In this document: positions 4,713 to 64,000 of the stretch, in pieces
How positions within the stretch are numbered: the stretch's first letter is position 1
How the letters are laid out: each line of letters begins with the position of its first letter
Translations under genes and position numbers: made by a program
NCBI GenBank assembly: GCA_022496805.1
Contig: CM040085.1
Location: forward strand, 22,659,811 to 22,723,810
Direction: 5' to 3'
DNA length: 64,000 nt
Origin: Pohlia nutans
Lineage: Eukaryota; Streptophyta; Bryopsida; Bryales; Mniaceae
Notes under the pieces: generated by a model
Told to the model about the DNA's origin: nothing
The model's input: the letters and a program-made list of their open reading frames with translations, nothing else
The model's database searches: none

Positions 4713-5838
4713 TTAACTCCTAGACATCCTCATCCCTCTTCAAATTTGGAGAATATCAAAGATGTCTTATAAAATGTAACTAATAGGGATATTTTGAACT
4801 TGATGTATGAATAAAAGTTGAACATTATGAATTTTTGATACTATCCATACAATTAGATCTATGATTGTTGTCCCTAATATTTTTGTATGAAATTTGAAAC
4901 TTAAAATTCAAAATTCTTTTGTAATTTGATTACGAATAAGATATTGAGATTTTGTACATGAAATTTGTTGCGATTGGTTGAAATGTAATTATCTTAGTGC
5001 AGTGATTTTTGGAGATTTTTTGGTTGTTGAATTTTATGAGTTGACATTTTTAACCCTTTAACGTTCCATTCCTTTGTAGAATAGTCAAACTACACTTTTA
5101 TATACAGTTCGGCTTTCAAGATTTGTTAAATATATTTTTAAATATTTTTCATGCATGAAATTGTATGTTTCCTATTAGTCCTAAAATTTTCCGATTTTCT
5201 TGACACAAAATGAACTTTTTACAATTTTTTAGGTCAAATACTTCAAGAAATTCATATTAATTACAAAAAATCTTCAAAAAATATAAAATTTCTAGAACAT
5301 GTGCAAAAGACAATGGAGAATCACATGATATATTTTATGTAGATTTTTTTAATTTAAATTTTAAAATTCAAAAGGTGAACATCCTATGCAGTGTAATTTA
5401 GACCTTGAGCTACATAGCTTGCAATAAAAATAAAATATTCAATACTTGAAAATTTTATAATCCGAAAAGTGAAGTGAAAACTAGATTCGATAGACTTCAT
5501 TTTCTCAAGTGAAAGCAATAGCAAAAAACTTCATCTCAAGGTCAAAATTGACTTTGACCAACAAACATCCACTATTTGGATGCACGGTCCTTAAAGGGTT
5601 AAGAACACTTTTACAGTCAAATCTTTGAAATTTTGGGTGAATCACTACAACATGAAATGATGCATAATTTTTTCACAAATCATCCCCTTTCTAATCGGAT
5701 CACATATGCATGAAGTTAACTTCCCATCAAATATTTAGTAAAAAAATCCACATTGCAAGAAGTCAATGACGGATGAGAAATCTGTGTTTGATTCTATACA
5801 TCGTTCACATTCTAGACAGTTAGACGTTTAGGAGTTAA
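4713..5838 (+). mobile_element. piggyBac-like MITE, family B (copy B1), split by a nested element
   Basis: The left end TTAACTCCTAGACATCCTCA and the right end TAGACGTTTAGGAGTTAA are imperfect terminal inverted repeats with TTAA at both outer edges. The interior matches copies at 20811-21337, 47605-48043 and 55471-56047. Without the nested insert (5050-5602) the length is about 575 bp, like the intact 55471 copy. There is no coding capacity. Confidence 0.75.
5050..5602 (+). mobile_element. piggyBac-like MITE, family A-type ends, nested in B1
   Basis: It begins TTAACCCTTTAACGTTCC and ends TTAAAGGGTTAA. It interrupts B1 exactly at a TTAA that is uninterrupted in the related copy at 20811 (site 21141-21144). 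The interior is non-coding and only partly like the other A copies. Confidence 0.8.
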
Positions 5839-6208
5839 CTACGAATTTAGCCTACCGATGGGAATGGAGAAACAAGGTTACAAGTTTCAAAACTAATTTA
5901 AAAGAACGCAGTCCAAGGCAATTAAAATTTTGTGAGAATGAGAGTATTCCGTTGTCCATTAACTCTGGAATGCCAGTAAAGACATTAAATGTCTTTTGCA
6001 TGAAAAAAAAGGGGACAAAAAGTGCTTTGGAAATTGTTTTTTCTTCATCCATTTTGTCGATGAAGCATGTAGTTGCTATTTATATTGACAACTTTTGCAT
6101 GTAATGTACAAAGTGTCAATATTGGGTCTCAATTGCTAATTGAGTAGTAAAAATGCACCATGGTGTAGTGTATTTTAAGTTTTGAGGATCTTTTTACCAA
6201 AACTCAAT

Positions 6209-6755
6209 TTAACCCTTTAACGTCCCAATTCAACACTGTTTTCAAAGTTTTGTTATAAAATGTTTGATGAAAAATAAAATTGGAGTTGATGTACAAAACA
6301 AAGTTGTAAATGTTAATGTGAAGATAACATCTGTACGGTTGAATTCATCATATTTATTATTAATATTTTTTAATTAATTTTGCAAGGTTTTCTCTTGAAA
6401 TTCAATTTAAAGTTCAAAATCAATACAAAAAATCAAAAAATATTGTAATGTAATTGGAATAACATGCACTACAAGATGGTATGGTTTCCATTATTTGATT
6501 CTACTTATTATGGAAAATCATGTTTAAGGTCTCACTTTTTGAACTAAGAATGAAACTTGACATAACCCACTTTTGTTATTTTTTCAAAAATTCACATCAT
6601 CTTATTTTGAAGATCCATACTGTACAAATAGTAGTCAACTAGCACAAGAATCAAGAGAATTTTGGATGGTGAAAAAGATCACCGTATGTGGTGAAAGGAC
6701 GCGTTAGAAATCATTCAGCGTCCAAAATATGGACGTTGGGGCATCAAAGGGTTAA
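6209..6755 (+). mobile_element. piggyBac-like MITE, family A
   Basis: TTAACCCTTTAACGTCCC is at the left and GGACGTTGGGGCATCAAAGG followed by GTTAA at the right. It is 547 bp long, non-coding and homologous to the copies at 29579 and 54918. Confidence 0.8.
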
Positions 6756-6995
6756 ACCATTAAAATGATGTGTTTTGAATTTGAGCATTACTAGCAATAT
6801 AAAGTTTACGAAATCTAGTATCTACTACTCTTTGATTTTTGAAATTTTTAAAGTTTTAATCTTTTTTTTACGGTCACAAGTTGAATATCCATTACCATGT
6901 GATGGTTATTTTTGCTAATTTTACGATCACAGTAAAAAAAATTCTACCATGATGATCTTCATTGTGATTTACACCCATGGTAGAAAATTTGGCGT

Positions 6996-7001
<6 letters not shown>

Positions 7002-7053
<52 letters not shown>
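7002..7053. repeat. (TA)n microsatellite
   Basis: About 26 uninterrupted TA units. Confidence 0.95.
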
Positions 7054-7056
<3 letters not shown>

Positions 7057-7586
7057 AATTGATATGATTTTCATTAGCATTCACTTTTAAAATTTACAAT
7101 AATTACAATTTTTCACCATATGTATGGATACTTTTTGACATGTATTGTACACCAATGGTGAGCGTATATGGCATCTTTTGCATGAAATGAACCCAAACTA
7201 AACAATGTTCTACACTGTACTGTACTTCCAGATGAACATTCATTTATTATTACTTATTTATATTAGATACACATGCCTTCATCTACTAAAATTATAATAT
7301 TGAACTTTAATGTTAATTACAGTACCAAAATAAATTGTGGAATGTGATGCTAATTCCATGGTAATTCCATGGTGTCCTGTAGGAGTTAACGTTGCATACT
7401 GATAAGAAACATATTGTATACAAGTGATCAAACACAAATTACAAAATCTACCCTATGTCGTGGTTAGTTTTGACATAAATAAATTATTTTTTTGTCAAAA
7501 AGCGCCACATGTCATCTTGTGGCAGGTTCAGGGTGACGTGGATCCTCAAAATCTGACGTGGAAACTCAATTTCAACACCAAGCAAT

Positions 7587-7757
7587 CTGAATCTGACGGT
7601 ATATACCGTATATGTATTATACATCGACACAAACTAGAATTCTGCACTCAGCAGGACAATACAACTAACCTGTACTGAATCTGACGGTATATATACGTAT
7701 TATACATTGACACACATCATAATTCTGCACTCAGCAGGACAATACAACTCACAGAAA
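7587..7757. repeat. Tandem duplication (~85 bp x 2) downstream of the dioxygenase
   Basis: Two direct copies start CTGAATCTGACGGTATATA at 7587 and 7675 and both run through TCTGCACTCAGCAGGACAAT. The pair lies 50-220 bp beyond the dioxygenase stop codon, so it is probably in or near that gene's 3' UTR. Confidence 0.85.
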
Positions 7758-7809
7758 AGATTCCATAGTTTTGAATGTTCCATGTTGTCAAAATGAGAGA
7801 AGTAGTTGG

Positions 7810-10800
7810 TCACTGCTGTGAGTCTGGGAGTTCCAGGTACTTCAAACCATCCATGGGCACTTCACGTCCCACATAATGCGCCCGGTATTCATTCACAGTG
7901 AAGGGCCGGTACTTGAGCGGCCGCTCTTTGGTTACCAGCTCCGGTGGCACTTTGAGCGGCACCGTGTTGTCTATACCGTAGAAGTAGATGGTAGCATACC
8001 GAGATCTGGTTGTGTTTAATGCCACTCGGTGGGCTGCACTGTGCAGTATACCATTTGTGATGGCCTGCACCCATCCCCCATCAAAAACAAAATACTTAAA
8101 TCTTTGACTGGAAAACTCCAAAATATAGCTGCCAACATAAGGAAGAATTTAAGAATTCAAGGAATCAGGGTGTTTAAGATGCTCCAAATCTCTGACATCT
8201 TGCCAAATCCTCTCACATCTTGACTCGTCCAAGAATGACAGTGTTGATACTCAACCAACAAGTCTAGGTACTCCCAGCCACAATGAAAAGAGATACTACT
8301 CTTGAATGTTATGTGAATCATTCAAGGAAGGTTGGACTCTGATGAAAAGTTTGGTAACGCCGATGAAGCAGTTTTCTGACTGTCGTCTTACAATTGGGTA
8401 CACAAAAAAAATCCTGGTGAGAGGGGTTACCAACCTGGACAATGAACTCAAGCGGATTTCATTGCAAAACTTGCTTACAATTAGGTGTAACAAGACAGAT
8501 TCAACACAAAAAGGTGATGAACATCGTTGAAAGGTTTGAAGATTCAAATCCTGGTGAGAGTGGTTACCAACCTGGAAAGTGAATGATGGAAATGTTTTTC
8601 TTGATAATGCAAATTACCAGGACAGTGACGGTTGGACTCTGATGTTTTTATCGTTTTTGAGTAATGCAAATGAAGCAGATTTCATTGCAAAATCTGACTG
8701 TCCTCTTACTTACGATTTGGGTGTAACAAGACAGACTCAACATAAAAGGTGATGATCACTGATGACATCACAATATTGGCAAGTCACGTTTCTTCTGCGA
8801 TGTTTTACACATGCACATACAATAACAATACGTTAAACATACGATAAACGCACATGAATCCTAAGTTTTACGAATATTAAACATAATCACCCTTGTTGAT
8901 CCTGGCGAGGGAGAGGGGTGACACAGGAAACCCTCACAGTTTGACTCCCGGGCCAAACTTGGGGTGGGGGGTAAAAATGAGGGATTTTTACCCCAGGGCA
9001 GTTTTTTTTAACCCCACGCCCGTCAAAAGCACCATGGTTTTACCCCGGTAAAGGTTCCAGAAAGGGAGTCAAAGTTTGACCCCCGACTCCCAATCTACAC
9101 TTTCGGTCACATTGCTAAATGGGGTAAAAAATGAGGCCAAACTATCCACTTTTTACCCCGGCGAAAATGTCTGGGACCCAGGCTGTGTGACAAAGCAAAT
9201 TACACACCTGGAAAGTGTCGCCGAGGTTGCATACGAAGGTGGAATCATCTGGGCGGATGTCGATCCAGTTGCCATCCTTGAGCACTTGCAAGCCTCCCAC
9301 CTCGTCTTGGTAGAGGATGGACAACATCTGGGGGTCGGTGTGCGCCGGGATGCCGAACACCTTGGATGGGTCCGGGCAGGGCGGGTAATGGTTCACCCGG
9401 GCCGTGCTGATGGCGTTGGGCGTCTCCAGCTTTGTGAACGTGTCCGGGCTCAGCCCCAAGCTCTCACTCAGGCACTCCACCATCAGCCGTGCCAGCTCCC
9501 TCATTGTGCCGAAGTAGTCCATTAAATCCGCTCTAATCACAATTCCATGAGTTCAGCAAATATCAAGAGTCGAGGACCAAGATTTCATGGTTTCAAAACA
9601 CAGGGTCCCAGACATTTTTGCCGGGGTAAAAAGTGGATAGTTTGGTCTCATTTTTTACCCCATTTAGCACTGTAACCGAAAGTGCAGATTGGGAGTCGGG
9701 GGTCAAACTTTGACTCCCTTTCTCGAACCTTTATCGAGGTAAAACATGGTTTACTAGGGTAAAACCATGGTGCTTTTGACGGACGTGGGGGCAAAAAAGA
9801 ACTTCCCTGGGGTAAAAATCCCTCATTTTTACCCCCCCACCCAAGTTTGGCCCCGGAGTCAAATTGTGAGGGTTCCCCATGAAATGACCAAATTCATTTT
9901 GAAAAATGCAATTCAGACAGGGCCTAATATTATATTACGAACATTGTACATGTCCAAAAACAAATAGAAACTGAGTAATAGTAGTAGTGATATGGACCAA
10001 GATTTCCTCGTTTCAAAATGACCAAATTCGTTGTGAAAAATGTAATTCTTACAGGACCAAATATTATATTACCAGAATCAGTGCACATGTTGGCCCAAAA
10101 GCAAATAGAAACTGAACAAAAGAATGACCCCACAACAAAAGACCAGAATTTCATGGTCTTAAAATGACCGATTTGATTTACCGTAATGTACAGAATATTT
10201 TTGAGTAATAGTAGTAGTGACACGGCACCTTTTGAGGACAATGCCAACTAAGGGTTCTTTAAAGATAAATCATGCCAAATTAAAGCTCTGAACATACTTT
10301 CACGATGGCTAATTGGCATGGGGAGCTCTCCCTTGGCACAACTTTGCAAACCAAGGTGCATGAGAATCTTGTCAATCCAGAGAGGGTTCTCTAGAATGTT
10401 ATGGTAATTCACACAAGGCCAAGATTTTTTGTCACCGAAGAACATTGCACACGTTAGTCAAAAAATAAATTAAAATTTGAACAGAAGAAAATCCCCATAT
10501 GACCCACTCAAAAGTGCTTAACCCCTAAAGGACCACGAGGCCACCACGTGGCTTCCGGAACTAGAAAGTAAGGAATTTCGAGTTGTTGAACCGTGAATTG
10601 TAAAGTGAGCAACAAAGAGACCCTAGTTCTTTTTGAGAGTTGAATCCGTGAGTACTTCTTGATTGAAATTTCATGAAGTGTGCAATTTTTGGTGATTTTT
10701 TTGAGTCGCACGGTGGGTATTTTGGCGTCACTTCAGACCCTCATATCTTCTTCCTCGCACCTCCAAATCACTTGAAATTTTTTCCACATTTTTAAAATGA

Positions 10801-12683
10801 TGATTTCTACTCACAGTAAAAATTTCAGATTTTTTGGAGCACTTTTGATCAATCCGATTTCAGCATGTGTACAAAATACCCTGAACAAGTTCCATCAATC
10901 TTCTCAACGGTGGCATTTTCTCAAAAATTGTGCGATTTTGTCGATCTTTTCTTCATACAAAAGCTATGTAAGTCTTCTTTGATTTTAACGGTGCCGATTG
11001 TCAAAATTATCCCACACCAACGAGGAATTGAGCTTGTTATAAGAGCTAGTCAAGAAAACAAGAGCTAAGCTAAAAAACCCCCCGGTCCTTTAGGGGTTAA
11101 AAAACACGTAAGGTCCAATTAGGTTAGGTGGGAAATGTGATTCAAGCGATTCAAGGACGAAGATCCTGATCAATTGCATTTGTTGATTTGAAGATGAAAG
11201 CTGAGCATTGTTGCATGATGCTGCGAGTGAGTAGATTGTTTGCTTACTTGAATTCCTGAGCAAACGGGATCCTCAGACCGGACGTGTGTCACCATGTTGG
11301 TTATTATTTCCTCTTGAACCTGCAACGCCAAAATCACGGGAGACAAAACACAATCCGCTGAATTGTCATGGAACAAATTTACAATCTGCAAATAAAGGTA
11401 TGCCTGCATTGCATTGAATCAACCCCTACCATGGTTTGCAAATTCAATTGTGAAAAATATAACTCAGATGGGGCCAAATTTTATTGAACACCAGGAACAT
11501 TGCATGTGCTGGTAAAATTGGACAAAAGCAAGTTCCTATATGACCTACTTAAATTGGTAACAAAAACACAAGGAGCTCACTTTCATATGCAGTCCCTCCA
11601 TCCACCATCGGTAGCGCCAGCTGACGGGAGATCCCCCAACGTAACCAAACGCGAAGTTGGACGCTTTCACCATCAATTTCTTCTCCATGGGCAAATCGAA
11701 GAACTTCTTCACATTCCGCTCTGCTTTCTTCACCTGCCATCAACCCTCACATCGCGTTATCCACATTTTCACACATGTCCCAAGCCTTCCATTTGGCAGG
11801 TACCGTGGCTTTGAATTGCCCAATTTGCCATGGAGAGAATATGATGTTTTAAAGAGACACTTGCATTGGGATAGAGACTTACATGTGCACAATATGATGT
11901 TCTAAAGAGAGACTTGCACATGTGCACAATATGATGTTCTAGAGAGAGACTTGCATAGAGAGAGACTTGCACATGTGCATAAGTGCATCAACCCTCACAC
12001 CGCATTAGCCACATTTTCACACATGTTCCAAGCCTTGCATTTGACAGGTACCGTGGCTTTGAATTGCCCAATTTGCCATGGAGATAACATGGTGTTCTAG
12101 AGAGACACTTGCATTGGGATAGAGACTAGATATAGACACTTACACGTGCACAATATGATGTTCTAGAGAGAGACTTGCATAGAGAGAGACTTGCACATGT
12201 GAACAATGTCCACTCTCGAGATAGAGATAATATCGGTGCCATTGCTGTGAGTCCTGCAGTAAGTTCATGAAAATTTGAGATACTAACTGCGACATGGAGC
12301 TAGCCAGGCATTGGATAGATAGTTAGTGTGCACAGTACCACTTCCAATGCGATGCCGTGGTTTCGGATCTTGAAGAACCCCCACGTCTTACAGGCTTCCA
12401 ACATGAGGGCGAGGTTGGCGTCGCGAGCCTCCTTGTCATTTCCAAGCAACGCCACGACGTCGATCACGGGCAGCGCTTCATCTTGCTCGAAAACATTGTG
12501 CGGCACATTGGGCTTGTCAGTCCCAGAAACTTCAAAGTCCTTCAACGACAACTTCCCGTTCCATAACTGTTGCATTGTGTACAACGGAACCTCAGGCTCT
12601 GCCACCGCAACTCCCGGAACAATTACTTTCGCATCATCATCGCCATGGCCATGATCCTCTTGAAGAATACCCGTCGCCCCCAT
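7810..12683 (-). CDS. 2-oxoglutarate/Fe(II)-dependent dioxygenase (DOXC class, GA-oxidase-like)
   Basis: Five exons: 12683-12339, 11733-11581, 11319-11248, 9532-9208 and 8064-7810 (stop), about 383 residues, the usual family length. Exon 1 carries the N-terminal DIOX_N region (LPVIDVVALL, EACKTWGFFKIRNHGI). Exon 2 has FFDLPMEKK and SPVS. Exon 4 has the iron ligands in AHTD of FGIPAHTDPQMLSIL and GGLQVLKDGNWIDI. Exon 5 has the third ligand in HSAAHRV. The 2OG-binding R-x-S motif reads RYA instead. Family members are soluble enzymes that hydroxylate or oxidise hormones and specialised metabolites; the substrate here is unknown, and the gibberellin-oxidase likeness is only overall. Exon 3 ends in phase 0 at its good donor (gtaagc), while the only exon 4 acceptors need phase 2 or 1. 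Either a weaker donor at 11278 is used, or the gene is damaged. The exon 1 donor could be 12342 instead. Confidence 0.82.
8328..8750. repeat. Imperfect direct repeats in dioxygenase intron 4
   Basis: GGTTGGACTCTGATG recurs about 300 bp apart, each followed by related stretches containing GAAGCAG, CTGACTGTC and AGGTGATGA. It is a degraded tandem duplication with no coding signal. Confidence 0.5.
8929..9880. repeat. Long inverted repeat (~250-bp arms) enclosing dioxygenase exon 4
   Basis: The left arm (about 8929-9185) and right arm (about 9600-9880) are reverse complements with only scattered differences and one ~20-bp indel. Outer ends read GGAAACCCTCACA and TGTGAGGGTTCC; inner ends read GTCTGGGACCC and GGGTCCCAGAC. 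The ~415-bp loop contains the whole of exon 4 (9208-9532). Confidence 0.9.
9890..10517. other. Intron 3 DNA with family-C-derived fragments
   Basis: The motif AAATGACCAAATTC, with a following stretch like the interior of family C elements, recurs near 9885 and 10015, and a weaker version near 10165. It looks like degenerate, partly tandem MITE debris inside the dioxygenase intron. Confidence 0.45.
10518..11100 (+). mobile_element. piggyBac-like MITE, family-C ends with a different interior
   Basis: TTAACCCCTAAAGGACCACG is at the left and CCGGTCCTTTAGGGGTTAA at the right, 583 bp in all. The ends match family C but the interior does not match the 230-bp C copies. It lies in the dioxygenase intron between exons 3 and 4. 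Confidence 0.75.
11737..12215. repeat. Tandem duplication (~248 bp x 2) in dioxygenase intron 1
   Basis: CATCAACCCTCACA...CCACATTTTCACACATGT occurs at about 11739 and 11987. Both copies run on through GGTACCGTGGCTTTGAATTG and a smaller repeat, TTCTAGAGAGAGACTTGCA. The first copy starts directly against the exon 2 acceptor. Confidence 0.85.
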
Positions 12684-14121: not shown

Positions 14122-17100
14122 ATGCAGAGTATGGTGGGCGTTCAGTTTTCTCGACCTCCAAGCCCTGCGTCGCGATGTATTGCAATCGGGTCATGCCAAA
14201 GCTACGCACGGAATGCCAAGCTTGGCTATTATCCAAGCCTTCACTTCCTGGTATACCCCAAGTTCAACTCCTTCAGGAAACTGACCAAATTGGTTCCTGC
14301 CAATGCCAGCCACTCCGAGTATGCTGCAGGGGAAGAGCTCATCAGTCTTAAGGTCCGAAATTTTCACTCATTTTTTGTTTATCCTTTACGTGAATTGAAA
14401 TGGAATTTTCATTCTCTTAAGGCTGATGATAGAAATTGAAAAGTTGCATGGGATTCTCATTACTTGGGGAGCTCTGAACACCCTTGGAATCAATGAACAA
14501 TGAGCCAAGATTCTTTTTCTCCGTTTGCAGTTGGGGGAGGATTCGACTTCGAACGCTCCAGATTCAGCTTCCTCGCAAGGTTCAACTTCAGAAACCGAAG
14601 CGAGGAGTACGTACATCTTTACCATTTAAACCCTAAAGGACCAAGAAGCCCAAATTGAGTCTCATTTTTTTTTTATAGCAGTTTTGAGTACGTCCTATGT
14701 GGTTTTTTTTGGTTTCGAAATTATTTGGTTTTTGATCAACACATGCAATGCTCCACTGGTTATGGAGGTACAAAATTTGAATTATCTTTTTCACAATATG
14801 ATTGATTGAATTTGTCATTTTAAAACTATGAATCCTTGGTCCTTCAGGGGTTAAACCCCTACGAAGCTCAAATTAGGTCTGCTTTTTAAAAATAAAAAGT
14901 AAACACTTTTGAATAGATCATATGGGGACTTTCAATTATTTTTTGACCAACACATGCACTGATTCCAGTCCGGTGATTTAGAATTTGACCCCATCTGAAT
15001 CAGATGTTTCACAATATGATCAATCAAGCTGGTTGTTTTAAACCATGAATCCTTGGTCTTTTTAGGGGTTAATGCTTCAGTATCTAGGTTTGAATAATTG
15101 TACAGGGTCATCTTAATTACTGAAGTTTCCCATTGATTATTTGATGTCATGGTTCTATTTTGGACACGATGTTGTATACTTTTCGGTTCATGGATCTCTG
15201 CTTTGGATTCTCTAGGATTTGTGTTCCGGAGTTTGGTTCTGAATAGCAAGCTTTCTTGCTTTCTTGGTCAAGCAGGTCGGATAGCAGAGGATGAGGAAGA
15301 AAGTGTATTGAAGAGCATCGTGAATCTGGCTCTACCTGCTCTTGGCGCTGTGTAAGCCTCATTTTGTCCTCTTCATTGATGTTAACCCCTAAAGGACCAA
15401 GAAGCCCAAATTGGACCTCATTTTTTAGCATTTTTGAGTAGGTCATATGTAGAGTTTCCTTTGCTCAAATTTATTTATTTTTTAACCAACACATGCAATG
15501 TTCTTCGCTGATTCCAGTGATACAAAATTTGGTCCCATCTGAATTTTGATTTTCACAATATGATCAATTGAATTCGTCATTTTAAAACCATGAATCCTTG
15601 GTCCTTCAGGGGTTAAGTCTATTTATGGTGTCCTATAAATAATTTTCTTCTTCTTGTGAGAATGTTCGGCATCCTACTTTCAAATTTAGCAATCCATGGA
15701 AATGAATCAACTTGTCAAGTTAATATCCTAATGGCAGATTATCGGATCCAATCATGAGCCTGATTGACACTGGCTGCGTGGGCCAAGTGAGCTCAGTCGA
15801 TCTTGCTGCACTTGGTCCGAACACGTCTATTTTCAACTTTATATTCCAGGTATGATCGTAAAAGACGACTGCCAACCTCATGGACACGAATGACTCTTAG
15901 CAACTTATTGCTTTATTGTTTCCTTTTTCACTAGCCATATGACGTTCTAGTCCTCCAGAATCAGTCAATGGCCGGATGCATTCTCTGAATTCGTTTAGTA
16001 GTATTTGCAACTTCAGCTCTCAGCCTGTAATTACCATGAATTACACGTCCCTGCCATTTCCGGAGGGTTTGTTGCAACGTTTTGAAAGTGTGCGTTATGA
16101 AAGCAACTCTTTAGCATCATCCAGTTTTTCATTGATGTGGCAGCTCTTTACGTTTCTGGGATCTGCGACATGTAATTTGTTGGCTGGCATTAGTACGCGT
16201 GCTTCCTCTATTGAAGAACAGAAAACTCAACAACACCAGGTACTCTGAAATAGGATCTTGCAATAGTGCTTTAATATGGAGAACTTGGCTGATGACCTTG
16301 CTAAAGAGGCCAAAGGTGATGGTATTTGGATTTCAGTTTTCACTCTCTTTGATGTTTCACGATGTCTGTTGGATCATCCACTTTGCATACCAGAATTTAT
16401 TACCGTGTAACATTTGTGCACAGGCATCACAGCTCCTCAACCACGCTCTTTTCTTAGCTGTGACTTTTGGAGTGGCAGTTTGTGTCTTCATGGAGGCCTT
16501 AGCTCCTCGACTCTTATCACTCATGGGCACAGGCCCAGAGTATTTGAAACCTGCTCTTGTGTACCTTCGAATTCGAGCACTTTCTGGTACAACACTAGTC
16601 TAGAAGTTCTCTTCTCCAAAACCTAAACAGTATTGATGATTCTTAGTTCATATTTTCAAGCGAGCTCCTTGGTATCCCTGCTTCCTAACATTTTCTGAAT
16701 CCTGGTGGTTTAGATGATTTTAGAAACTCTTGTGATTGTGGCTCTTATTCAATTGTTGAGCTTCTACCCTAGTTGCTTAGTCTCTACTTTTTTTGAATTC
16801 TTTTCTTTTCTATCCCATATTTTCGTTAGCATATGGATCTGATGATTACGGGTGTTTTCTGTTTTTGCAGCCCCAGCTGTCCTTATTCTAATCGTGGGGC
16901 AAGGGGCCTGTTTGGGGCGTCAAGATGCAACCACTCCTCTGCAAGTCAACACCATGGCAGCTGCCTTCAATCTCATTGGAGACGCCATGTTCACCCTTTA
17001 TCTTGGCTGGTAAAACATCATTCAAAACTATCTGAATCTTTCAAATCTCTGAGCACATCTCAGTTGCTCCTTATATCCATTAATTTTTGGTTACTTTACA

Positions 17101-19970
17101 TTGAAAAGTCCTTGTTGAATCGACCTATTCATATGTTCAAAAAGGAGACACTATTTTGTTAACGTACACCACACAAGATCATATTTCTTTTTAACCCCAA
17201 GTGCCCAAAAGTGACCGCTTCCATATCTGAAATGAAAGTTAATAAATGTATCATTAGAAAGAATAAATCATGTACTACACTTTTGATGACAGAAATTTGT
17301 TTTGAAAGTTACTAGGATCGACTATTAGCTTCCAAAGTAGACATTCTGTTTTTAGTTTGGGGTTAACCCCCTAAAGGACCAAGAAGCCCAAATTGGGCCC
17401 TCGTTTTTTTTTAGCATTTTTGAGTAGGTTCTATGAGGACTTCTTTTTGTTTCTTTTCCAACATATGCAATGTTCGTCATTGATTCCGATGATATAAAAT
17501 TTGGTCGCATTTCAATTATTGATTTCTCATAATATGATCGATTGAATTTGTCATTTTAAAACCTTGAATCCTTGGTCTTTTAGAGGTTAAGCTGCACATA
17601 ATGCACATGTTTTCTTTTACCAATCCTGCATTAGGCAAGATCTACCAAACCTAAGCCATCAGGTTGTTTAGGTTTCGGATTTGTCTCGTCTTCCAGATGT
17701 TTTAGCTAATGACCTAGTGTGTTGACATGCGCAGGGGAGTTGCAGGAGCTGCGTGGGCAACCCTCATTTCGCAGTGTGTGGCGGTCATACTCTTGGTGAG
17801 GAAGTTGACAGGAAATTCTATGCAGCAGCAGCAAACTGAAAGCGAAGTGGACTTATCAAAGGCTCTACCTCTCAAGCTGGGATGGTATGGACTGCCAACA
17901 TTACAAGTTCTTGGGCCTTTTCTGGCTCTGGCAGGCCCTTTGGTAGTAAGGTGTGCTCTTGGCATGGTATGTGTGTTTACTGAGCTCACAAACTCCCACT
18001 TGAGGATCATTTTTCCATTTCCGCATTCAACATTTCGGTTGCAGTCAAGGAGAGCTCGTCATCACTCCCCCGTTAATTATACACGGTTTTGGCTAAAGGA
18101 CAAAGAAGCCCAAATCGGGCCTCATGTTTTTCTTGGTAGTTTTGGGTAGGTCTTATGTGAAGTTCCTTAGGTTCAAACTTATTTGTTTTTTTTATCAACA
18201 CATGCAATGTTCTTCATTGATTCTGGTGATATAAAATTTGGTCTCATCTGAATTGTATTTTTCACAATATGATTGATTGAATTTGTCATTTTAAAATCAT
18301 GAATCCTTGGTCCTTTAGGGGTTAAGAACCACTAGGAATTGTAGATTGTGTGTACGCTTGAACTCTGCTAATCCAGGTAGTATCTTATGGAAACCCATAT
18401 TACAGTAATTTTTCCTTCAGGTTTCTCCTACGTTAGTTTTACTACAGTTGAGATTAAGGATCACAGATTACATGATATTTGTCGATTTAGAATATTGGTT
18501 TACTAATGTAAATTCATCTGTCGGATGGCAGACCGTCTACACGCTTACTACAAAGGGAGCTGCTGAATTTGGAACTCTGAGCGTCGCAGCACACCAAGTG
18601 GCTTTGCAAGTATGTAGAATTCCGCGTCTTTATCTCATATTTGTAAATAGTGGTAGAATTCGCTTTTTATGAGTTGTTTGAAGGATGAAGTGAACTGCCT
18701 ACTGGGTAAATAAATAGCTAGAGCTACGTCCTTGTCATATTTGACCTCACTTTGAGTGAAACTGGCTTGTTTGAAATGCTAATAAATTTTTGTGGCAGGT
18801 GTTCTGGACATTAAGCTACTTCCCCGAGTCTTTGTCAATTGCGGCTCAATCATTGGTTGCACGAGATGTGAAATCCAAGCCACAGGTGCATGAGATGGCT
18901 TTATGTGTTGAGAGTTCCTTCCTTTTTGAGTGACGTACTTCTATATATCATTATTCATCTTACATAACAATAAAAAATGTTAAATCAACTTTGATTTATT
19001 TAAAATAAAATAAAAAATTGGTTATGAAACGTGTGTCCTTGCTTCTGCAGAGAGCGCAAAAATTGGCACGGATGCTGTTAGGCTTTGGGACACTGCTGGG
19101 CGTTGCTTTAATGGGCGTTGTTGCCTCCGTGCACTATCTCGGATCGTCATGGCTTACAGCAGACCCGAATGTGCAACATCTGGTGCAGTCTGTGACTTTG
19201 CAAAATATGCTTTGTGAATTACTCTGCGCAGTTGCACTTGTGATTGAAGGGACTGCCATAGCAGCTGGTGAGAAAATTTACTTCTAAAGATCTACTTTCA
19301 AATTCATAAGCAAAAGTCATCCTTTCAAAATAAGTATCTAGTATTAACATGTATACAAATTATGTTGTTTTCTTTTCTGGATGGTACCATGCTTACCTAT
19401 TATGGTTTTTATTAGATATTCTAGCGTATTCTTAATCCCTAAGTGCTTAAGCTAAAAGTAAAAATTCTCCTTTAGTCGTAGTAACTTTCAAAACATATTT
19501 CTATCAATCAAAAATGTATGGTATGACATATTTCTATTGATACATTTTGTTACTTTCCTTGAATGATCTTTTCAGCTCCGAAAGATATGGGAGTGGCCAC
19601 TTTTGGCCATTTGGGGTTAACCGCATCAAGAATTATAACTTTGGATGCTTGAAAACCACAGCGAATGTTTTGATTAAATGTTTTGGTGAGCGCAGGTGAT
19701 TTCGCTTATCTGCCGAAAATGCAGTTTCTGAACCTCGGCGGTGTCCTCTTAGCCCTTTGGCTAACATTCCGAAACAACTGGGGATTGGGAGGCATCTGGT
19801 GGTGCCTTGTGTTCTACTTCGGATTTCGCGTTGTTTTCCATTTCTGTTACATTGCCTTCCATTGGAAGACTCATGTGAGCTCTCTTTATTTCTCCCTCCC
19901 CTCCCAGTTGCTTGGCTCAACCGTAGGATATTTCAACCAACTTGAATTTATTAGCACCTACAAATTTTGA
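14122..19970 (+). CDS. MATE efflux transporter, plastid-type (EDS5/DTX-like)
   Basis: Twelve exons join in phase to 593 codons: 14122-14352, 14531-14606, 15276-15351, 15738-15849, 16144-16239, 16424-16586, 16871-17009, 17735-17966, 18532-18609, 18799-18885, 19051-19267, 19696-19970. MATE hallmarks include LSDPIMSLIDTGCVG, SSVDLAALGPNTSIFNF, GQGACLGRQDATTPL, GTLSVAAHQVALQV and TAIAAGDFAYL. About twelve hydrophobic segments are expected. The first ~100 residues are basic and Ser-rich and then acidic, with no membrane segment, as in plastid-envelope MATEs such as EDS5 and DTX45/46. MATE proteins export organic compounds by cation antiport; for EDS5 the cargo is salicylate or a precursor, but the cargo here is unknown. 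Introns 2, 3, 7, 8 and 11 carry TTAA-type MITEs. The last exon reads past the usual end to a stop at 19968. Family sure, subtype likely. Confidence 0.88.
14626..14854 (+). mobile_element. piggyBac-like MITE, family C (C1), in MATE intron 2
   Basis: TTAAACCCTAAAGGACCAAG is at the left and CCTTGGTCCTTCAGGGGTTAA at the right, length 229 bp. The interior contains CACATGCAATG and CACAATATGATTGATTGAA, shared by all C copies. Confidence 0.85.
14851..15072 (+). mobile_element. piggyBac-like MITE, family C (C2), abutting C1
   Basis: It starts on the same TTAA that ends C1 (14851-14854) and ends TTTAGGGGTTAA. The left end is more diverged (CCCCTACGAAGCTCAAAT). Confidence 0.8.
15382..15616 (+). mobile_element. 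piggyBac-like MITE, family C (C3), in MATE intron 3
   Basis: TTAACCCCTAAAGGACCAAG is at the left, GGTCCTTCAGGGGTTAA at the right. At 235 bp it is one of the cleanest copies and makes up over half of the intron. Confidence 0.87.
17191..17366 (+). mobile_element. piggyBac-like MITE, family E (E1), in MATE intron 7
   Basis: TTAACCCCAAGTGCCC is at the left and TTTGGGGTTAA at the right, 176 bp. The interior (ATGTATCATTAGAAAGAA, AAAGTTACTAGGA) differs from families A-D and is related to 19432-19620. Confidence 0.7.
17363..17590 (+). mobile_element. piggyBac-like MITE, family C (C4), abutting E1
   Basis: TTAACCCCCTAAAGGACCAAG begins on the same TTAA that ends E1. The right end CCTTGGTCTTTTAGAGGTTAA is at 17590. 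Length 228 bp. Confidence 0.83.
18091..18325 (+). mobile_element. piggyBac-like MITE, family C (C5), left end eroded, in MATE intron 8
   Basis: The interior and the right end (GGTCCTTTAGGGGTTAA) match family C. The left side starts at GGCTAAAGGACAAAGAAGCC, with the outermost CCCC and TTAA lost. Confidence 0.75.
19432..19620 (-). mobile_element. piggyBac-like MITE, family E (E2), in MATE intron 11
   Basis: TTAATCCCTAAGTGCTTAAG is at the left and GGCCATTTGGGGTTAA at the right. The interior shares AGTAACTTTCAAAACA and similar motifs with E1 in the opposite orientation. Confidence 0.65.
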
Positions 19971-20810: not shown

Positions 20811-21337
20811 TTAACCCATAAACGTCCTCACCCCTCTCCAGATTTGGAGAATTTCAAAGATGTCTTATAAAATGTAACTAAGAGCGATATTTTTAAACTT
20901 GATATATGAATAAAAGTTGTACATTATGAAATTTTTGATTCTATCCATACGGTTAGATCTATGATTGTTGTCACCAATATAAAATTTGAAACCTAAAATT
21001 CAAAATTCTTTTGTAATTTGATTATGAATAAGATATTGACAATTTGTACATGAAATTTGTTGTGATTGGTTGAAATGTAATACTCTAAGTGTAGTGATTT
21101 TTGGAGATTTTTTGGTTGCTTAATTTGATGAGTTGACTTTTTAAGAGCACTTTTACACTGAAATCTTTGAAATTTTGGGTGAATCACTACAACATGAAAT
21201 GAGGCATAAAAATTTCACAAATCACCCCTTTCTAATCGGATCGCACATGCATGAAGTTGAATTCCCATAAAATATGTAGTTAAAATTCCACACTGCAAAA
21301 AGTCCACTTTCTGGACAGTTGGACGTTTAGGCGTTAA
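20811..21337 (+). mobile_element. piggyBac-like MITE, family B (B2), intact
   Basis: TTAACCCATAAACGTCCTCA is at the left and GGACGTTTAGGCGTTAA at the right, 527 bp. It carries the uninterrupted TTAA (21141-21144) that is filled by a nested element in B1. Confidence 0.85.
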
Positions 21338-21916: not shown

Positions 21917-22618
21917 TTAACCCGTAACTACCTAAGCGTTCATTTTTTGAACGATTTACAGATTTCATCCATAATTTCTCATCCGCCATGCACTTTTAGC
22001 AGTGTGGAATTTTTACTGTAGATTCTATGGGAAGTTAGCTTCATGCATATGTGATCTGATTAGAAAAGGGATGATTTGTGAAATTTTTATGCCTCATTTC
22101 ATGTTGTAGTGATGTGATCTGATTAGAAAGGGGATGATTTGTGAAATTTTTATGCCTCATTTTATGTTGTAGTGATGTGATCTGATTAGAAAGGGGATGA
22201 TTTGTGAAATTTTTATGCCTCATTTCATGTTATAGTGATTCACCCAAAATAATGAAGATTTTAGTGTAAAAGTGCTCTAAAAAAAGTCAACTCATATAAT
22301 TAAGCAACCAAAAAATCTCCAAAAATCACTACACTTAGAGTATTACATTTCAACCAATCACAAAAAATTTCATCCGTAGATTGTCAATATCTTATTCGTA
22401 ATTGAATTACAAAATAATTTTGAATTTCACGTTTCAAATTTTATACAAAATTATTGGTAATAACAATCATAGATCTAACCGTATGGATAGAATCTAAAAT
22501 TCATAATGTACAACTTTTATTGATATATCAAGTTCAAAATATCCCTCTAAGTTGCATTTTATAATGCATCTTTGCAAAACTGCCGAATTTGGAGAGGGCT
22601 CTAGGCATTTAGGGGTTA
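21917..22618 (-). mobile_element. piggyBac-like MITE, family B (B3), inverted, internally expanded
   Basis: The left end TTAACCCGTAACTACCTAAG matches the right end of the 55471 copy in reverse, and the right end is CTCTAGGCATTTAGGGGTTA followed by T. It is longer than other B copies because of an internal 63-bp tandem triplication (22051-22239). Confidence 0.8.
22051..22239. repeat. 63-bp tandem repeat, three copies, inside B3
   Basis: GTGATCTGATTAGAAA starts units at 22051, 22114 and 22177. The units are nearly identical. Confidence 0.92.
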
Positions 22619-22877: not shown

Positions 22878-23678
22878 TTAACCCTTTACTGCTCAATAAA
22901 CCAGATAATGGTCATTGCAATGTCGGAAATGCAAATAATAGAAAATCTGTGAAGAATTTGATTTTGAATTGTGAAGTTCTGATTTGGAGATTTATAATAC
23001 ACATCTTCTTGAAAAAGAAAATTTCAATTTGGAGTTGTGCAACTATCAAAATACTTGTGAACAAAATGCAAAAATATTGCAAATACTTGATAATACAGTA
23101 AATACTTACAAATATAACACATGTATTATGCGGTATTTCTTGTGTTTGGAAGTTTGTTATCTTGTTTTATTCTTTTGGATGGTGTTCTCTTGTTCATGTT
23201 CCATTAGTGTATGTATTCCGATCTTGATCCATGTACCAACTCCTTTCATATTTTGATGTATAAATTTTTGTCCTAAACCATACATGGACAAGTCACTCCT
23301 ACTTATAAAATTCACAATATTTATGTGTGAGTCTATTCAAAGATTGCAATGGAGAGGTGTTGACATAGGTCATTGTTGAACCTCTTTACTTTCATTTTTG
23401 AAAATTTAACCTTAATTCTATTTAACTTTGAAGTCAGACACCCTCCAAAATCTCATTTTTGAGTGTGTATTATACAGTTCAAAAACATACTATGATCTTC
23501 CAATCCCATCATTGGATGATTCTCTAATTTTGGCAAAATGTCCCCACTCCAATTGAGAATACAATTGTTTGGTTACTTTCTAATTGAATTCACTCTATTT
23601 TTGGTAGTATCAATCGTAGTGGAAAACCCAGTGAAATCCAATGAACCTAGCTATAGTACCATGAGGGGTAAAGGATTA
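22878..23678 (-). mobile_element. piggyBac-like MITE, family D (D2)
   Basis: The left end is TTAACCCTTTACTGCTCAA, the right end ATGAGGGGTAAAGGATTA (outer TTAA eroded). The interior is homologous, in the opposite orientation, to 44939-45745: both contain TTCTTGTGTTTGGAAGTTTG and GTTCATGTTCCATTAGTGTA or their complements. Confidence 0.72.
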
Positions 23679-26304: not shown

Positions 26305-26398
26305 AATCATGATTCCTTGAGTCAAATTTGAAGCTATTGGGTTCTCCCTCCCTGTCTTGTGTAGCTGTTGTGCAAATAGGTGGGAGCTTGTGTCAAAG

Positions 26399-33915: not shown

Positions 33916-33977
33916 CGTGCACTAGTATACTGCAACAACCAGCTTTGAGTTTCTTACGATGCACGTCTTGTCCAATA

Positions 33978-44938: not shown

Positions 44939-45745
44939 TTAACCCTTTAGTGCCTAGAGTGGTTATGAAGAAACCACAGTTTTTTGGGTGATGTTTTTTT
45001 AAAACTTTCTATGTTGAAATTCAGAATACCATTAATAGTATTCAACCATATAAATGTAAACATAGCTTAATGAAACAAGTGTCGGTTAAATCTTGGTAAG
45101 ATCGGACCGTTGGATTGGAAGATTATAGTATGTCTTTGAACCGTATAGTGCACACTCAAAAATGAGATTTTGGGGGTGTGTGACTTCAAGGTTAAATAGA
45201 ATTTGAGTTAAATTTTCTAAAATGAAAGTGAAGATGTTCAGCAATGACTTGTGTCAACACCTCTCCATTCCAATCTTTCATGTCAAGAACAGACTCATAC
45301 ATAATTATTGTGAATTTTATAAGTGAGAGTGACTTATCCATGTACGGTTTAGGACAAAGTTTATACGTTAAAATAATAAAGGAGTTGGTACATTGATCAA
45401 GATCGGACTACATACACTAATGGAACATGAACAAGAGAACAGAATCCCAAAAAAGAATACAAGATAACAAACTTCCAAACACAAGAAATATCACAAAGTA
45501 CATGTGTTGTGTTTGTAAGTATTTGTTGTCTTTTGAGGCATTTGCAGTATTTTGGTGTTTTGTACATAGATATTTGGATAGTTAAGAAAGTCAGATTCCA
45601 AATTTTCTTTTTGCATCATCTACAGAATCAAAAGTTACAGTTTTGAACTTCAAACATCAGACTGAGATGGTTCACGGATTTTACGACATTTCATTTCTAG
45701 TGATCTAGTGACCACTTAGTGGTTACCTAGGCACTAAAGAGTTAA
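44939..45745 (+). mobile_element. piggyBac-like MITE, family D (D1), intact
   Basis: TTAACCCTTTAGTGCCTAGAG is at the left and CCTAGGCACTAAAGAGTTAA at the right, 807 bp. Subterminal arms GTGGTTATGAAGAAACCAC and ACCACTTAGTGGTTACC extend the inverted repeat. No transposase ORF. Confidence 0.82.
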
Positions 45746-47604: not shown

Positions 47605-48043
47605 TTAACCCCTAAACGTCCTCATCTCTCCCCGAATTTGGAGAATTTTAAAGATGTCTTATAAAATGTAACTAAGAGGGATATTTAATATTTTGAGCTT
47701 GATATGTGAATAAAAGTTGTACATTATGAATTTTAGATTTTATCCATATGGTAGATCTATGATTATTGTCACCAATATTTTTGTATAAAATTTGAAACTT
47801 AAAATTCAATTTTTTTTCGTAATTTGATTACAAATAGGATATTGACAATTTGTACATGAGATTTGTTGTGATTGGTTGAAATGTAATACTCTAAGTGTAG
47901 TGTTTTTTTGGAGATTTTTTGGTTGCTTAATTTTATGAGTTGACTTTTTAAAAAGCACTTTTACATTGAAATCTTTGAAATTTTGGGTGAATCATTACAA
48001 TATGAAATGAGGCATAAATATTTTACAAATCATCCCTTTTCTA
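47605..48043 (+). mobile_element. Truncated piggyBac-like MITE, family B (B5)
   Basis: TTAACCCCTAAACGTCCTCA is at the left. The interior follows family B to AATCATCCCTTTTCT; the right end is missing. Confidence 0.75.
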
Positions 48044-54917: not shown

Positions 54918-55465
54918 CTAACCCTTTGAGGCGCCTGCGTACACATAGTGGACGCTGAACAGATTCAAACTGTTCGAATTCCATTCAAATTGGACAGTTT
55001 TCATCCACCAAAATTTCTCATGGTTCTTGTGCAAGTTGACTATCCTTTGTACAGTTTGGATCTTCAAAATAGGTTATTATGATTTTTGGAAAAACAACAC
55101 AAGTGGTTTATGTCAAGTTTCATTCTTAGTTCAAAAAGTGAGACCTTAAAGATGATTTTCCAAAATAAGTAGAATCAAATAATGGAAACCATATCATCTT
55201 GTAGTGCATGTTATTTCAATTTCATTACAATTTTTTTATTTTAAATTCCGTTAATTCATGATTTTTAATTGATTTTCAAGAGATAACCTTGCAAAATTAA
55301 TTGAAAAATATTAAAGAAATATATGATTAATCCATCCGTACAAATGTGATCTTCACATTGACATTTACAACTTTTCTTTGTACATCAACTCCATTTTTGG
55401 TTTTCATCAAACATTCTATAACGAATCTTTGAAAACAGTGTTGAACTGGGACGTTAAAGGGTTAA
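54918..55465 (+). mobile_element. piggyBac-like MITE, family A, adjacent to B6
   Basis: CTAACCCTTTGAGGCGCCTG is at the left (first T of TTAA mutated), GGGACGTTAAAGGGTTAA at the right, 548 bp. It ends 5 bp before the family B copy at 55471. Confidence 0.82.
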
Positions 55466-55470
55466 CCCGC

Positions 55471-56047
55471 TTAACCCCTAAATGCCTAGAGTCCTCTCCA
55501 AATTCGGCAGTTTTGCAAAGATGCATTATAAAATGCAACCTAAAGGGATATTTTGAACTTGATATATGAATAAAAGTTGTACATTATGAATTTTAGATTC
55601 TATCCATACGGTTAGATCTATAATTGCTATTACCAATAATTTTGTATAAAATTTGAAACGTGAAATTCAAAATTATTTTGTAATTCAATTACAAATAAGA
55701 TATTGATAATCTACGGATGAAATTCAATGTGATTGGTTGAAATGTAATACTCTACGTGTAGTGATTTTTGGGGATTTTTTGATTGCTTAATTTTATGAGT
55801 TGACTTTTTTTAGAGCACTTTTACACTGAAATCTTCAAAATTTTGGGTGAATCACTACAATATGAAACGAGGCATAAAAAAATTGCAAATCATCCCCTTT
55901 CTAATTGGATCACATATGCATGAAGCTAACTTCCCATAGAATCTACAGTAAAAATTCCACACTACAAAAAGTGCATGACGGATGAGAAATTTTGGATGAA
56001 ATCTGTACATCGTCCAAAAAATGGACACTTAGGCAGTTAGGGGTTAA
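55471..56047 (+). mobile_element. piggyBac-like MITE, family B (B6), full length
   Basis: TTAACCCCTAAATGCCTAGAG is at the left and ACTTAGGCAGTTAGGGGTTAA at the right, 577 bp, the best complete B copy. Confidence 0.85.
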
Positions 56048-62079: not shown

Positions 62080-62312
62080 GGCTGAAAACAGAAGAGGAGT
62101 TGAAGAGGAGTTCCCTCTCTATAATTAAATTTTCTGACAACCATTGTTTATGAATAGTTCCCATGGTCGGGGCCCTTGGCTTGAGGGAGCGGATGGGAAC
62201 TCTCCTTTAGCATTGGGGAGGTCACAAGTTTCACGCCCCGTGATGGCGCAGGATCTTACTTGAAATTATTCTTCAATTCACCATAGACTAGTTTTACCGT
62301 CTTTTTGAACTC
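62080..62312 (+). mobile_element. SINE-like element, family S (copy 3)
   Basis: GCCCTTGGCTTGAGGGAGC, CTCCTTTAGCATTGGGGAGG, TCACAAGTTTCACGCCCCG and CACCATAGACTAGTTTTACC match copy 1, including ~100 bp upstream of the tRNA-like part. Confidence 0.65.
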
Positions 62313-62643
62313 AAAACGAGATGAAGGTGAGTATGAGGTAAGTTTCCACTTTGAGACACTCTTTTCGGTTAACTCTACTGATAAACCTAATCTCAGAAGG
62401 GGGGTTGCTAATGTAACATGCTCTAGTTCAAGTAGGCGACTTAGAAACTGTGTTATTTATAAGCATGGGCACCAATTTCTTGGAATTCCGCCAATATTGT
62501 GATTAAAGAATACAAGTTGAATTCTAGATAGAGTGATTACCTCCACTTATTCTGATCCATTTCGGAGGGCTTACGCTGAAGCTGAGTGATGGAATTCGAA
62601 TTCGAAGATTGCCGAAAATGAATGTCTCAACGTACCGTTGTGA

Positions 62644-62825
62644 CACTACAAGCAGAGGCGTCGTTTCTCACTTTGGAGGATCTTGTTCATTGTTGCTTTT
62701 TACTGTACATGTTTGTCCTGCGTAACGAATAGCACTCACCAAGTCCAACCAAAAAATTGGTGAGTGCGAAGTGGTGTTGTTTGACTCATAGAGGGAGTGA
62801 AAAGCTACGTCTTCTCCTTGTAGTG
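62644..62825. mobile_element. CACTA-type MITE (182 bp), TGA target duplication
   Basis: CACTACAAGCAGAGGCGTC and CTCCTTGTAGTG are flanked by TGA at 62641-62643 and 62826-62828. Same family and orientation as 26399-26582. Confidence 0.9.
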
Positions 62826-62971
62826 TGACTTGTGAGGTCGACAAATGGATCAATAATGCTGAAACGTCACCCACTAGAGCTGTTGTTAAATGAATTATGA
62901 ATATAATTCAATAGTAGCTCAAACTTTTTGGAGCTTACTTTTGGAACTACTATGTGGTTTGTATGACGTAG

Positions 62972-63156
62972 CACTACAAGGGGAAGGCGTCGCTTTTCAC
63001 TCCTTTGAGTCAAACGGCGCCACTTTGCACTAACCAATTTTTTTGTTGGACTTGGTGAGTGCGATTCGTCACGTAGGACAAGCTTGTACAGTGACAATGA
63101 AAAGCGACAATGAACGGGATCCTCCAGAGTGAGAAACGACGCCTCTGCTTGTAGTG
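62972..63156. mobile_element. CACTA-type MITE (185 bp), TAG target duplication, inverted
   Basis: CACTACAAGGGGAAGGCGTC and GACGCCTCTGCTTGTAGTG are flanked by TAG at 62969-62971 and 63157-63159. It is the reverse orientation of its neighbour at 62644. Confidence 0.9.
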
Positions 63157-63322
63157 TAGGATATTGCATTGTGGAGTTCTAATACAATTTTGATGGAATT
63201 CATTTATCAGGTTCGAGTCCCTCGTTCACAACCTCATCCTTCTATTCCATACAAACCAACGCCAGTGAGAGCGCCTTGTTTACGTTCCACTGAGCTTGCA
63301 ACAAACCAACTTACAACGGTTT

Positions 63323-63560
63323 TTAACCCCTACAAGACCAAGAAGCCCAAATTGGGCCTCATGTTTTTTTAGCATTTTTGAGTAGATTCTAAGTAGAGTT
63401 TCTTTTGTTCAATTTTATTCATGTTTTGATCAATGCATGCAATGTTCTTCACTGTTTTTGATGATATGAAATTTGGTCTCACTTCAATTATAATTTTCAA
63501 AATATGATCAATTGAATTTATCATTCCAAAACCATGAATCCTTGGTCCTTTAGGGGTTAA
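63323..63560 (+). mobile_element. piggyBac-like MITE, family C (C7)
   Basis: TTAACCCCTACAAGACCAAG is at the left and GGTCCTTTAGGGGTTAA at the right, 238 bp. Confidence 0.85.
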
Positions 63561-63865
63561 TTCGTGAATGGTTTCGTGCACACGGACGGACTCACTCACC
63601 ACACGGATGTATCAATCAGTTTCGTCATTATCCAATACACACTAGCAAGCACCCTGTACAACAACAGAACTTAGGTTTTCATCGTGAACTTTGGATGAGA
63701 AACTCGGATGATTTCGTGACATTGGTTGTGACGAATCATGTCACCTTAACGGATGAAAAACCGCATGAATAATGGATATGAAGAATGGATGTAAGTTCCC
63801 GGATTTAAAAACATGACCATTTTTGTGACAATGGGTAGTGACATCAGATCGTGACCATATGTACT

Positions 63866-64000
63866 TGACCCTAAATGCCTAAAGCCCTCTCCAAATTCGG
63901 CAGTTTTGCAAGGATGCATTATAAAATGCAACTAAGAGGGATATTTTGAACTTGATGTGTGAATAAAAGTTGTACACTATGAATTTTTGATTCCATCCAT
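63866..64000 (+). mobile_element. piggyBac-like MITE, family B (B7), cut by the window end
   Basis: TTGACCCTAAATGCCTAAAG followed by CCCTCTCCAAATTCGGCAGT is the family B left end, with TTAA changed to TTGA. Confidence 0.72.

What the first reader, a model, noticed from the sequence alone, without database searches (positions are those of the whole stretch)
4713..64000. A dense population of piggyBac-type MITEs (TTAA targets, CCC...GGG ends) in a plant genome
About 25 non-coding elements of at least five unrelated interiors (A ~548 bp, B ~577 bp, C ~230 bp, D ~805 bp, E ~180 bp) all start TTAA-CC(C/T) and end GGG-TTAA. Examples: 6209, 10518, 15382, 17191, 20811, 29579, 44939, 54918, 55471, 63323. 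A 4-bp palindromic TTAA target with CCC termini is the hallmark of the piggyBac superfamily, which is well known in animals and poorly documented in plants. PIF/Harbinger (3-bp TWA) fits less well because the two sides would not be direct repeats with symmetrical ends. Together the elements cover roughly 10 kb of 64 kb. The superfamily assignment is inference from termini; no transposase is in the window.
Basis: partly seen in the sequence, partly recalled or inferred. Interest (0 to 1): 0.8.

Follow-up and report, generated by a model that had tools for sequence, protein, structure and literature searches.

The report
piggyBac jumping genes crowd a moss
Many short repeated DNA pieces in this moss genome are stripped-down relatives of piggyBac, a jumping gene best known from insects, and the same genome carries longer copies with the matching enzyme, which matters because piggyBac is little described in plants.

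Summary
The window lies in the moss Pohlia nutans: two scaffold lengths equal those printed for its assembly. About 10.4 kb of 64 kb (16%) is short non-coding elements bounded by TTAA with CCC...GGG ends, many decayed. Of 20 sampled family A copies 20 have TTAA on the left and 19 on the right; 9 of 50 elements tested have a related empty site with one 4-bp copy. The genome gives 116 scored piggyBac transposase matches, E 3.1e-74 to 1.6e-81. In 14 of 20 transposase loci TTAA-CC ends lie on both sides, and four of seven short families match a transposase lineage. New here: the end upstream of the transposase carries a palindrome centred at bp 25 in 6 of 9 lineages, differing in sequence, the register bound by the C-terminal domain of insect piggyBac. 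These are non-autonomous piggyBac elements, presumably mobilised in trans: new families of a known superfamily. Host, scale and palindrome register are what is new. Present activity was not tested.

The parts
4713..5838 (+). Family B copy with decayed ends (TTAACTCCT...AGGAGTTAA), interrupted by element F
5050..5602 (.). Element F, 553 bp, nested in the B copy at a TTAA; LE-type palindrome at 5566-5582
   Evidence: TTAA at both ends; empty site 21072-21209 has one TTAA; palindrome
6209..6755 (+). Family A, 547 bp; LE at the right side with palindrome at 6719-6735
   Evidence: partner; weak empty site
10518..11100 (.). Element G, 583 bp; LE at the left with palindrome at 10538-10554
14625..14854 (+). 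Family C copy, left end decayed
14851..15072 (+). Family C copy abutting the previous one and sharing its TTAA
15382..15616 (+). Family C, 235 bp
17191..17366 (.). Element E, 176 bp, sharing its right TTAA with the next C copy
   Evidence: no clear partner
17363..17590 (+). Family C copy
18093..18325 (+). Family C copy, left end decayed
20811..21337 (+). Family B copy; holds the unoccupied TTAA (21141-21144) where F sits in the 4713 copy
21917..22618 (-). Family B copy with an internal 63-bp tandem expansion; TTAA at 22618 side mutated
22878..23677 (-). Family D copy, far end decayed (end approximate)
25388..26309 (.). Truncated B copy followed by C-type pieces (composite)
29579..30126 (-). 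Family A, 548 bp; LE palindrome at 29599-29615
   Evidence: empty site
36059..36250 (+). Short A-derived element
44939..45745 (.). Family D, 807 bp; LE-type palindrome at 45709-45725
47605..48043 (+). Family B copy, right part lost
54918..55465 (-). Family A, 548 bp; left TTAA mutated to CTAA, palindrome decayed
55471..56047 (+). Family B, 577 bp, intact ends; LE palindrome at 56011-56027
63323..63560 (+). Family C, 238 bp; LE palindrome at 63343-63359
63866..64000 (+). Family B copy cut by the window end

Best explanation
The elements are non-autonomous (MITE-type) members of the piggyBac superfamily in the moss Pohlia nutans. Transposases encoded elsewhere in the same genome recognise the CCC termini and, on one end only (LE, upstream of the transposase gene in full elements), a lineage-specific palindrome at about bp 17-33. 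By analogy with the solved insect enzyme, the C-terminal Cys-rich domains would bind that palindrome as a dimer, the ends would be excised through TTAA hairpins, and the element would reinsert at TTAA. Shown here: the TTAA duplication, shared ends with transposase-bearing elements, catalytic and zinc-finger residues, and the palindrome register in most lineages. Inferred: binding, excision route, and that these partners moved these copies.
For: TTAA on the left in 20 of 20 and on the right in 19 of 20 sampled A copies. Nine of 50 elements tested have a credible related empty site with one 4-bp copy. 116 scored PF13843 matches in the genome, 0 of 14 control genomes. In 14 of 20 fetched transposase loci TTAA-CC ends lie on both sides of the gene. 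Family A's right end matches the LE of a transposase element on C15 (50 bp, 80%) and its left end the RE (23 of 24 bp). B55471 scores best with L017, C and G with the L013/L016 lineage. Copies of full elements share sequence up to the TTAA borders and differ outside (L015/L027 95.7%, L013/L016 89.5%). DDD and C-terminal Cys/His residues invariant in 11 of 11 aligned; PDB match 6x67 E = 5.6e-35. LE dyad at bp 25: mean 0.70 over nine lineages against 0.25 in shuffles, 0 of 1000 shuffles as high at any centre scanned; Chen et al. 2020 place the CRD-bound palindrome at bp 17-33, centre about bp 25 (passages).
Against: No transposition was observed. Families D, E and F have no assigned partner (D was not scored); E has no palindrome either. 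The three window A copies find no clear partner among the 14 elements; the C15 partner was found afterwards and was not put into that scoring. Two of nine lineages (L017, L023) lack the bp-25 dyad (0.29) and L010 is weak (0.57); L020, checked later, peaks at 24.5 and scores 0.14 at 25. B's matched partner has a worse palindrome than B, so B's exact parent was probably not sampled. In five of the nine empty sites the tetranucleotide differs from TTAA by one base. Six of 20 loci show no pair of intact ends, and 7 of 20 further right-hand stretches no end at all. The Pfam zinc-finger model is below its cut-off.
Confidence: 0.96

Rival explanations
1. Kolobok MITEs, another superfamily that duplicates TTAA.
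For: TTAA duplication.
Against: Kolobok termini are 5'-RR...YY-3' (Kojima and Bao 2022, PMC9587614, passages read); these start CC and end GG. Elements with similar ends encode PF13843. Kolobok transposases were not searched for.
Confidence: 0.01
2. PIF/Harbinger (Tourist-like) MITEs with a 3-bp TWA duplication that only look TTAA-bounded.
For: TAA lies inside TTAA, and Harbinger MITEs are common in plants (passages).
Against: All four bases flank both sides in 19 of 20 A copies, with mixed bases outside; a 3-bp reading needs asymmetric ends. Joined flanks match empty sites with one 4-bp copy. Harbinger transposases were not searched for in the genome.
Confidence: 0.01
3. Real piggyBac elements, but fossils: the moss transposases no longer act, so the population is a relic of an older burst.
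For: Window A copies are 4.4, 11.1 and 15.3% from the column majority; 38 of 116 listed transposase matches hold stop codons (hand count), and the listed ones are the best-scoring of 1305 candidates.
Against: 78 of 116 matches are open over the domain (hand count); L014/L019 are 98.6% and L015/L027 95.7% alike over 6 kb (the left border of L014/L019 was not reached in the sequence held).
Confidence: 0.35

Closest known systems
piggyBac of Trichoplusia ni (PDB 6x67/6x68; Chen et al. 2020, PMC7351741, passages read)
   Same: TTAA target, CCC ends (recalled), DDD transposase with C-terminal Cys-rich domain, asymmetric ends, LE palindrome at bp 17-33
   Different: Several diverged lineages in one plant genome; palindrome sequence differs by lineage; full elements 4.7-7.6 kb; no copy of the palindrome found in the RE above background
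piggyBac elements and MITEs of animals (PMC10813416, passages read; MITEs recalled)
   Same: TTAA duplication and CCCTT-type termini; short forms mobilised in trans
   Different: Plant host; here matching transposase lineages are in the same genome
Kolobok (PMC9587614, passages read)
   Same: TTAA duplication
   Different: RR...YY termini
Tourist and Stowaway plant MITEs (PIF/Harbinger, Tc1/mariner; PMC10004981, passage read)
   Same: Short non-coding elements at high copy number
   Different: 3-bp or 2-bp duplications and other termini

Membership tests
piggyBac superfamily | 4-bp TTAA target duplication | tested here: met
   20 of 20 left, 19 of 20 right; L048 reads TTGA on the right; empty sites for 9 of 50 elements
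piggyBac superfamily | Termini CCY...RGG | tested here: met
   20 of 20 A copies start CCC; 18 of 20 end GGG and 2 of 20 AGG; 14 of 20 transposase loci; decayed in several window copies
piggyBac superfamily | Autonomous partner with DDE_Tnp_1_7 transposase and DDD triad sharing the ends | tested here: met
   partner lineage assigned for 4 of 7 families (A, B, C, G)
piggyBac superfamily | C-terminal Cys-rich zinc domain | tested here: met
   C529 C532 C542 C545 C555 H560 invariant in 11 of 11 aligned; Pfam zf-Tnp_2 only below cut-off, in 2 of 7 scanned
piggyBac superfamily | LE palindrome at bp 17-33 as in T. ni piggyBac (a feature of the type element; not known to me to define the superfamily) | tested here: inconclusive
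   6 of 9 lineages at 0.71 or more, 3 of 9 weaker; L020 at 24.5
piggyBac superfamily | Seamless excision through TTAA hairpins | not testable with these tools
   needs an excision assay
MITE | Short, non-coding, inverted termini, high copy number | tested here: met
   A: 547 bp, 1875 exact copies of a 22-bp end in the genome, 0 for the reversed control; 5881 first-look candidates, 40 scored
Kolobok | 5'-RR and YY-3' termini | tested here: not met
   20 of 20 A copies start CCC; definition from passages
PIF/Harbinger | 3-bp TWA duplication | tested here: not met
Sola3 | TTAA duplication with Sola transposase (recalled) | not tested
   No Sola search was made; matched partners are PF13843

The most novel reading that the evidence does not exclude
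One plant genome keeps several deeply diverged piggyBac lineages side by side, and each lineage addresses its own full and miniature elements through a private palindrome at a fixed distance (about bp 17-33) from the LE tip. The position is kept from insect to moss while the sequence changes, so the palindrome would act as an evolving recognition code that keeps the lineages apart. Some lineages would still be mobile, which would make them plant-native piggyBac systems.
Probability: 0.3. Interest if true: 0.75.

Novelty: new member of a known kind. Interest (0 to 1): 0.6.

Why it matters
A survey of MITEs in 207 plant genomes sorts them into five superfamilies without piggyBac (PMC12550479, passages read), so piggyBac elements like these could be misfiled. 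The Pohlia genome paper gives DNA transposons as 23.68% of the assembly and its main text does not contain the word piggyBac (PMC9247546, passages read; supplement not read). If the fixed-register palindrome is the recognition site in each lineage, the moss offers a natural set of transposase and end pairs for asking how piggyBac tells its own ends from others', and possibly piggyBac tools native to plants.

Tried and rejected
Kolobok and PIF/Harbinger were considered and rejected on termini and duplication length. A duplicate of the window region for clean presence/absence comparison was sought through the lectin-kinase gene: no close duplicate (best other matches 70-80% over part). A copy of the LE palindrome inside the RE was sought and not found above cross-lineage background. 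The protein searches (120 of 182 and 120 of 198 hits listed) showed almost only unnamed environmental proteins plus Leptopilina, Littorina and Patella, so host range and horizontal transfer could not be judged. The tree (FastTree, many long branches flagged) scatters the 20 Pohlia rows among unnamed rows (11 changes, 9 forced by starred branches). Empty-site hits dropped as artefacts of abutting repeats: window 10518, 14851, 55471, and L038. L043 (A inside A) was read from its flanks. In one search the B20811 row used a wrong right end (21387; the end is 21337) and was not used. Genome-wide counts of TTAA before the A end and of a general piggyBac end, and DNA searches with families B and C, were asked and never answered.
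Full report
What is there. The window holds many short non-coding repeats bounded by TTAA with CCC at one end and GGG at the other. TTAACCC is 17 against 4.5 expected and GGGTTAA 14 against 4.5; turned-round control words are not enriched. Pairs of facing, matching ends number 12, of which 8 are these elements, against 0-7 in 20 random sequences. Self-comparison defines families A, B, C and D, to which I add F and G; E is weak. Of 17 elements delimited, 13 have TTAA at both sides and 9 have TTAACCY and RGGTTAA at the two ends. My 21 intervals cover 10,371 bp, 16.2%, and no piggyBac transposase remnant was found in the window.

The host. The lectin receptor kinase at 32212-33921 has its best named relative in the moss Ceratodon purpureus (64%), followed by further Ceratodon and Sphagnum proteins; an unnamed protein is 97% identical. 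The genome held has 697.8 Mb (the paper prints 698.20). Two of its scaffold lengths, 52,153,166 and 30,709,574, equal the maximum scaffold and scaffold N50 printed for Pohlia nutans (PMC9247546, passages read). Taxonomy: Bryales, Mniaceae.

The target duplication. Twenty copies of family A at other places were fetched from the 41 best matches listed, so they lean to young copies. TTAA is on the left in 20 of 20 and on the right in 19 of 20; the other, L048, whose match stopped a base early, reads TTGA. Bases outside are mixed, with some lean (A in 12 of 20 just right of the element). L043 is an A copy inside the TTAA that lies within another A copy's terminus, with TTAA on both sides. Joined flanks of 50 elements were compared with all sequence held. 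Nine give a credible related empty site with a single tetranucleotide at the join, some with small gaps nearby: window F (91% over 139 bp), L017 (94% over 144 bp), and window 6209 and 29579, L012, L026, L029, L033 and L041 (71-81%). Four of the nine keep TTAA exactly (F, L026, L029, L033) and five differ by one base.

The enzyme. PF13843 gives 116 scored matches out of 1305 first-look candidates, E 3.1e-74 to 1.6e-81, and none in the 14 control genomes. By my hand count of that table 78 of 116 have no stop inside the match; these are the best-scoring ones. Transposases of 11 of the 20 fetched loci were aligned: D231, D317 and D434 (L014 numbering) and the C-terminal C-x2-C...C-x2-C...C...H are invariant in 11 of 11. 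L014 matches the solved T. ni piggyBac (6x67, E 5.6e-35) and piggyBat (9c0f, E 2.3e-21). That the three Asp are the insect triad rests on the alignment and on recall of its numbering.

The link between the short elements and the enzyme. Of 20 fetched transposase loci, 14 show TTAA-CC ends that I paired across the gene, 4.7-7.2 kb apart; of 20 further right-hand stretches 13 show a TTAA end and 7 none. Full elements in different places share sequence up to the TTAA and differ outside it (L015/L027, L013/L016; right border of L014/L019). Family A: left end 23 of 24 bp with the RE, and right end 80% over 50 bp with the LE, of one transposase element at C15:14797146-14804773, of which 441 bp in the middle were not fetched. 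B55471 scores 28 with L017 against 22 for the next element (L024, another lineage). C15382 scores 25 and 23 with L016 and L013 against 13 for the next, C63323 25 and 25 against 16, the decayed C18093 19 and 17 against 15; G 22 and 22 against 13, and G's right end is 93% over 28 bp with L068. F (15 against 13) and E (13 against 10) show no clear partner, nor do the three window A copies among these 14 elements, to which the C15 element did not belong; D was not scored.

The palindrome. A scan of 50 ends gave 14 with an inverted repeat at p of 0.05 or less by shuffling (2.5 expected), many at the same place in unrelated families. The follow-up scored nine lineage representatives that I picked, whose ends were among those already scanned. 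The score is the share of symmetric base pairs around a centre, leaving out the middle bases. The LE has mean 0.70 at position 29 from the first T, that is bp 25 of the element; the next best centre has 0.44; 0 of 1000 shuffles reach 0.70 at any centre from 20 to 49.5. The RE scores 0.17 there. By lineage: 1.0 L022 and L064, 0.86 L024 and L025, 0.71 L027 and L016, 0.57 L010, 0.29 L017 and L023. L020, read afterwards, peaks at 24.5 (0.75) and has 0.14 at 25. One end of families A, B, F, G, C and D scores 0.71-0.86 at bp 25, though for B, F and G other centres score as high or higher; E scores 0.43; these ends were picked. Of 23 family A copies, which are near relatives, 17 score 0.86, 4 score 0.71 and 2 less. 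Chen et al. (PMC7351741, passages read) report that a dimer of the C-terminal domain binds the palindrome at bp 17-33 of one LE, with the minor groove narrowed around bp 25. The register is therefore the same in most lineages, while the moss palindromes differ in sequence between them.

Amount. An exact 22-bp A end occurs 928 + 947 times in the genome, reversed control 0. Family A gave 5881 first-look candidates, of which 40 were scored. The 20 sampled copies differ by 4.6% on average.

Literature. The Pohlia paper reports 23.68% DNA transposons and has no occurrence of piggyBac in its main text. A related moss paper reports 29% terminal-inverted-repeat elements, CACTA the largest, and no occurrence of piggyBac (PMC11704416, passages). 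A survey of 207 plant genomes, four of them bryophytes, uses five superfamilies and has no occurrence of piggyBac. On the other side, trace piggyBac annotation exists in the fern Ceratopteris (1,230 copies; PMC6890710, passages), two reviews list piggyBac among plant elements, and one abstract says that piggyBac has been isolated from plants. Ten paper searches (several lists capped) listed no paper whose title or shown start of abstract describes piggyBac elements native to a moss; supplements were not read and most subscription papers are not held.

Verdict. It is a known kind of system in an unusual place and at unusual scale; whether it still moves is open.

Noticed in passing
window 17191-17590 and 18093-18325: Elements E and C lie between two open frames (16136-16603, Pfam MatE; 17718-18149, no Pfam match) that may be pieces of one transporter gene, so they may be intronic; another C copy overlaps the 3' end of the second frame.
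   Followed up: no
window 8926-9877: Inverted duplicate (8926-9179 / 9603-9877) overlapping or flanking a 2OG-Fe(II) oxygenase open frame at 9142-9552.
   Followed up: no
window 24135-24504, 46499-46971, 48177-48359, 22049-22239: Tandem arrays with units of 92, 102, 61 and 63 bp; the last lies inside a family B copy.
   Followed up: no
L010, L027, L025, 3' ends: Two CCGTG words about 30 bp apart in the RE, seen by eye; possibly a second protein site.
   Followed up: no
L009, L010, L012, L013: Stop-to-stop frames of 946-1104 aa; in the three scanned (L009, L010, L013) the transposase domain begins only at residue 457-626.
   Followed up: no
P0001, P0003, P0242 (environmental proteins): Unnamed relatives 69-74% identical to the moss transposase L014 over 49-75% of its length; host unknown.
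   Followed up: partly
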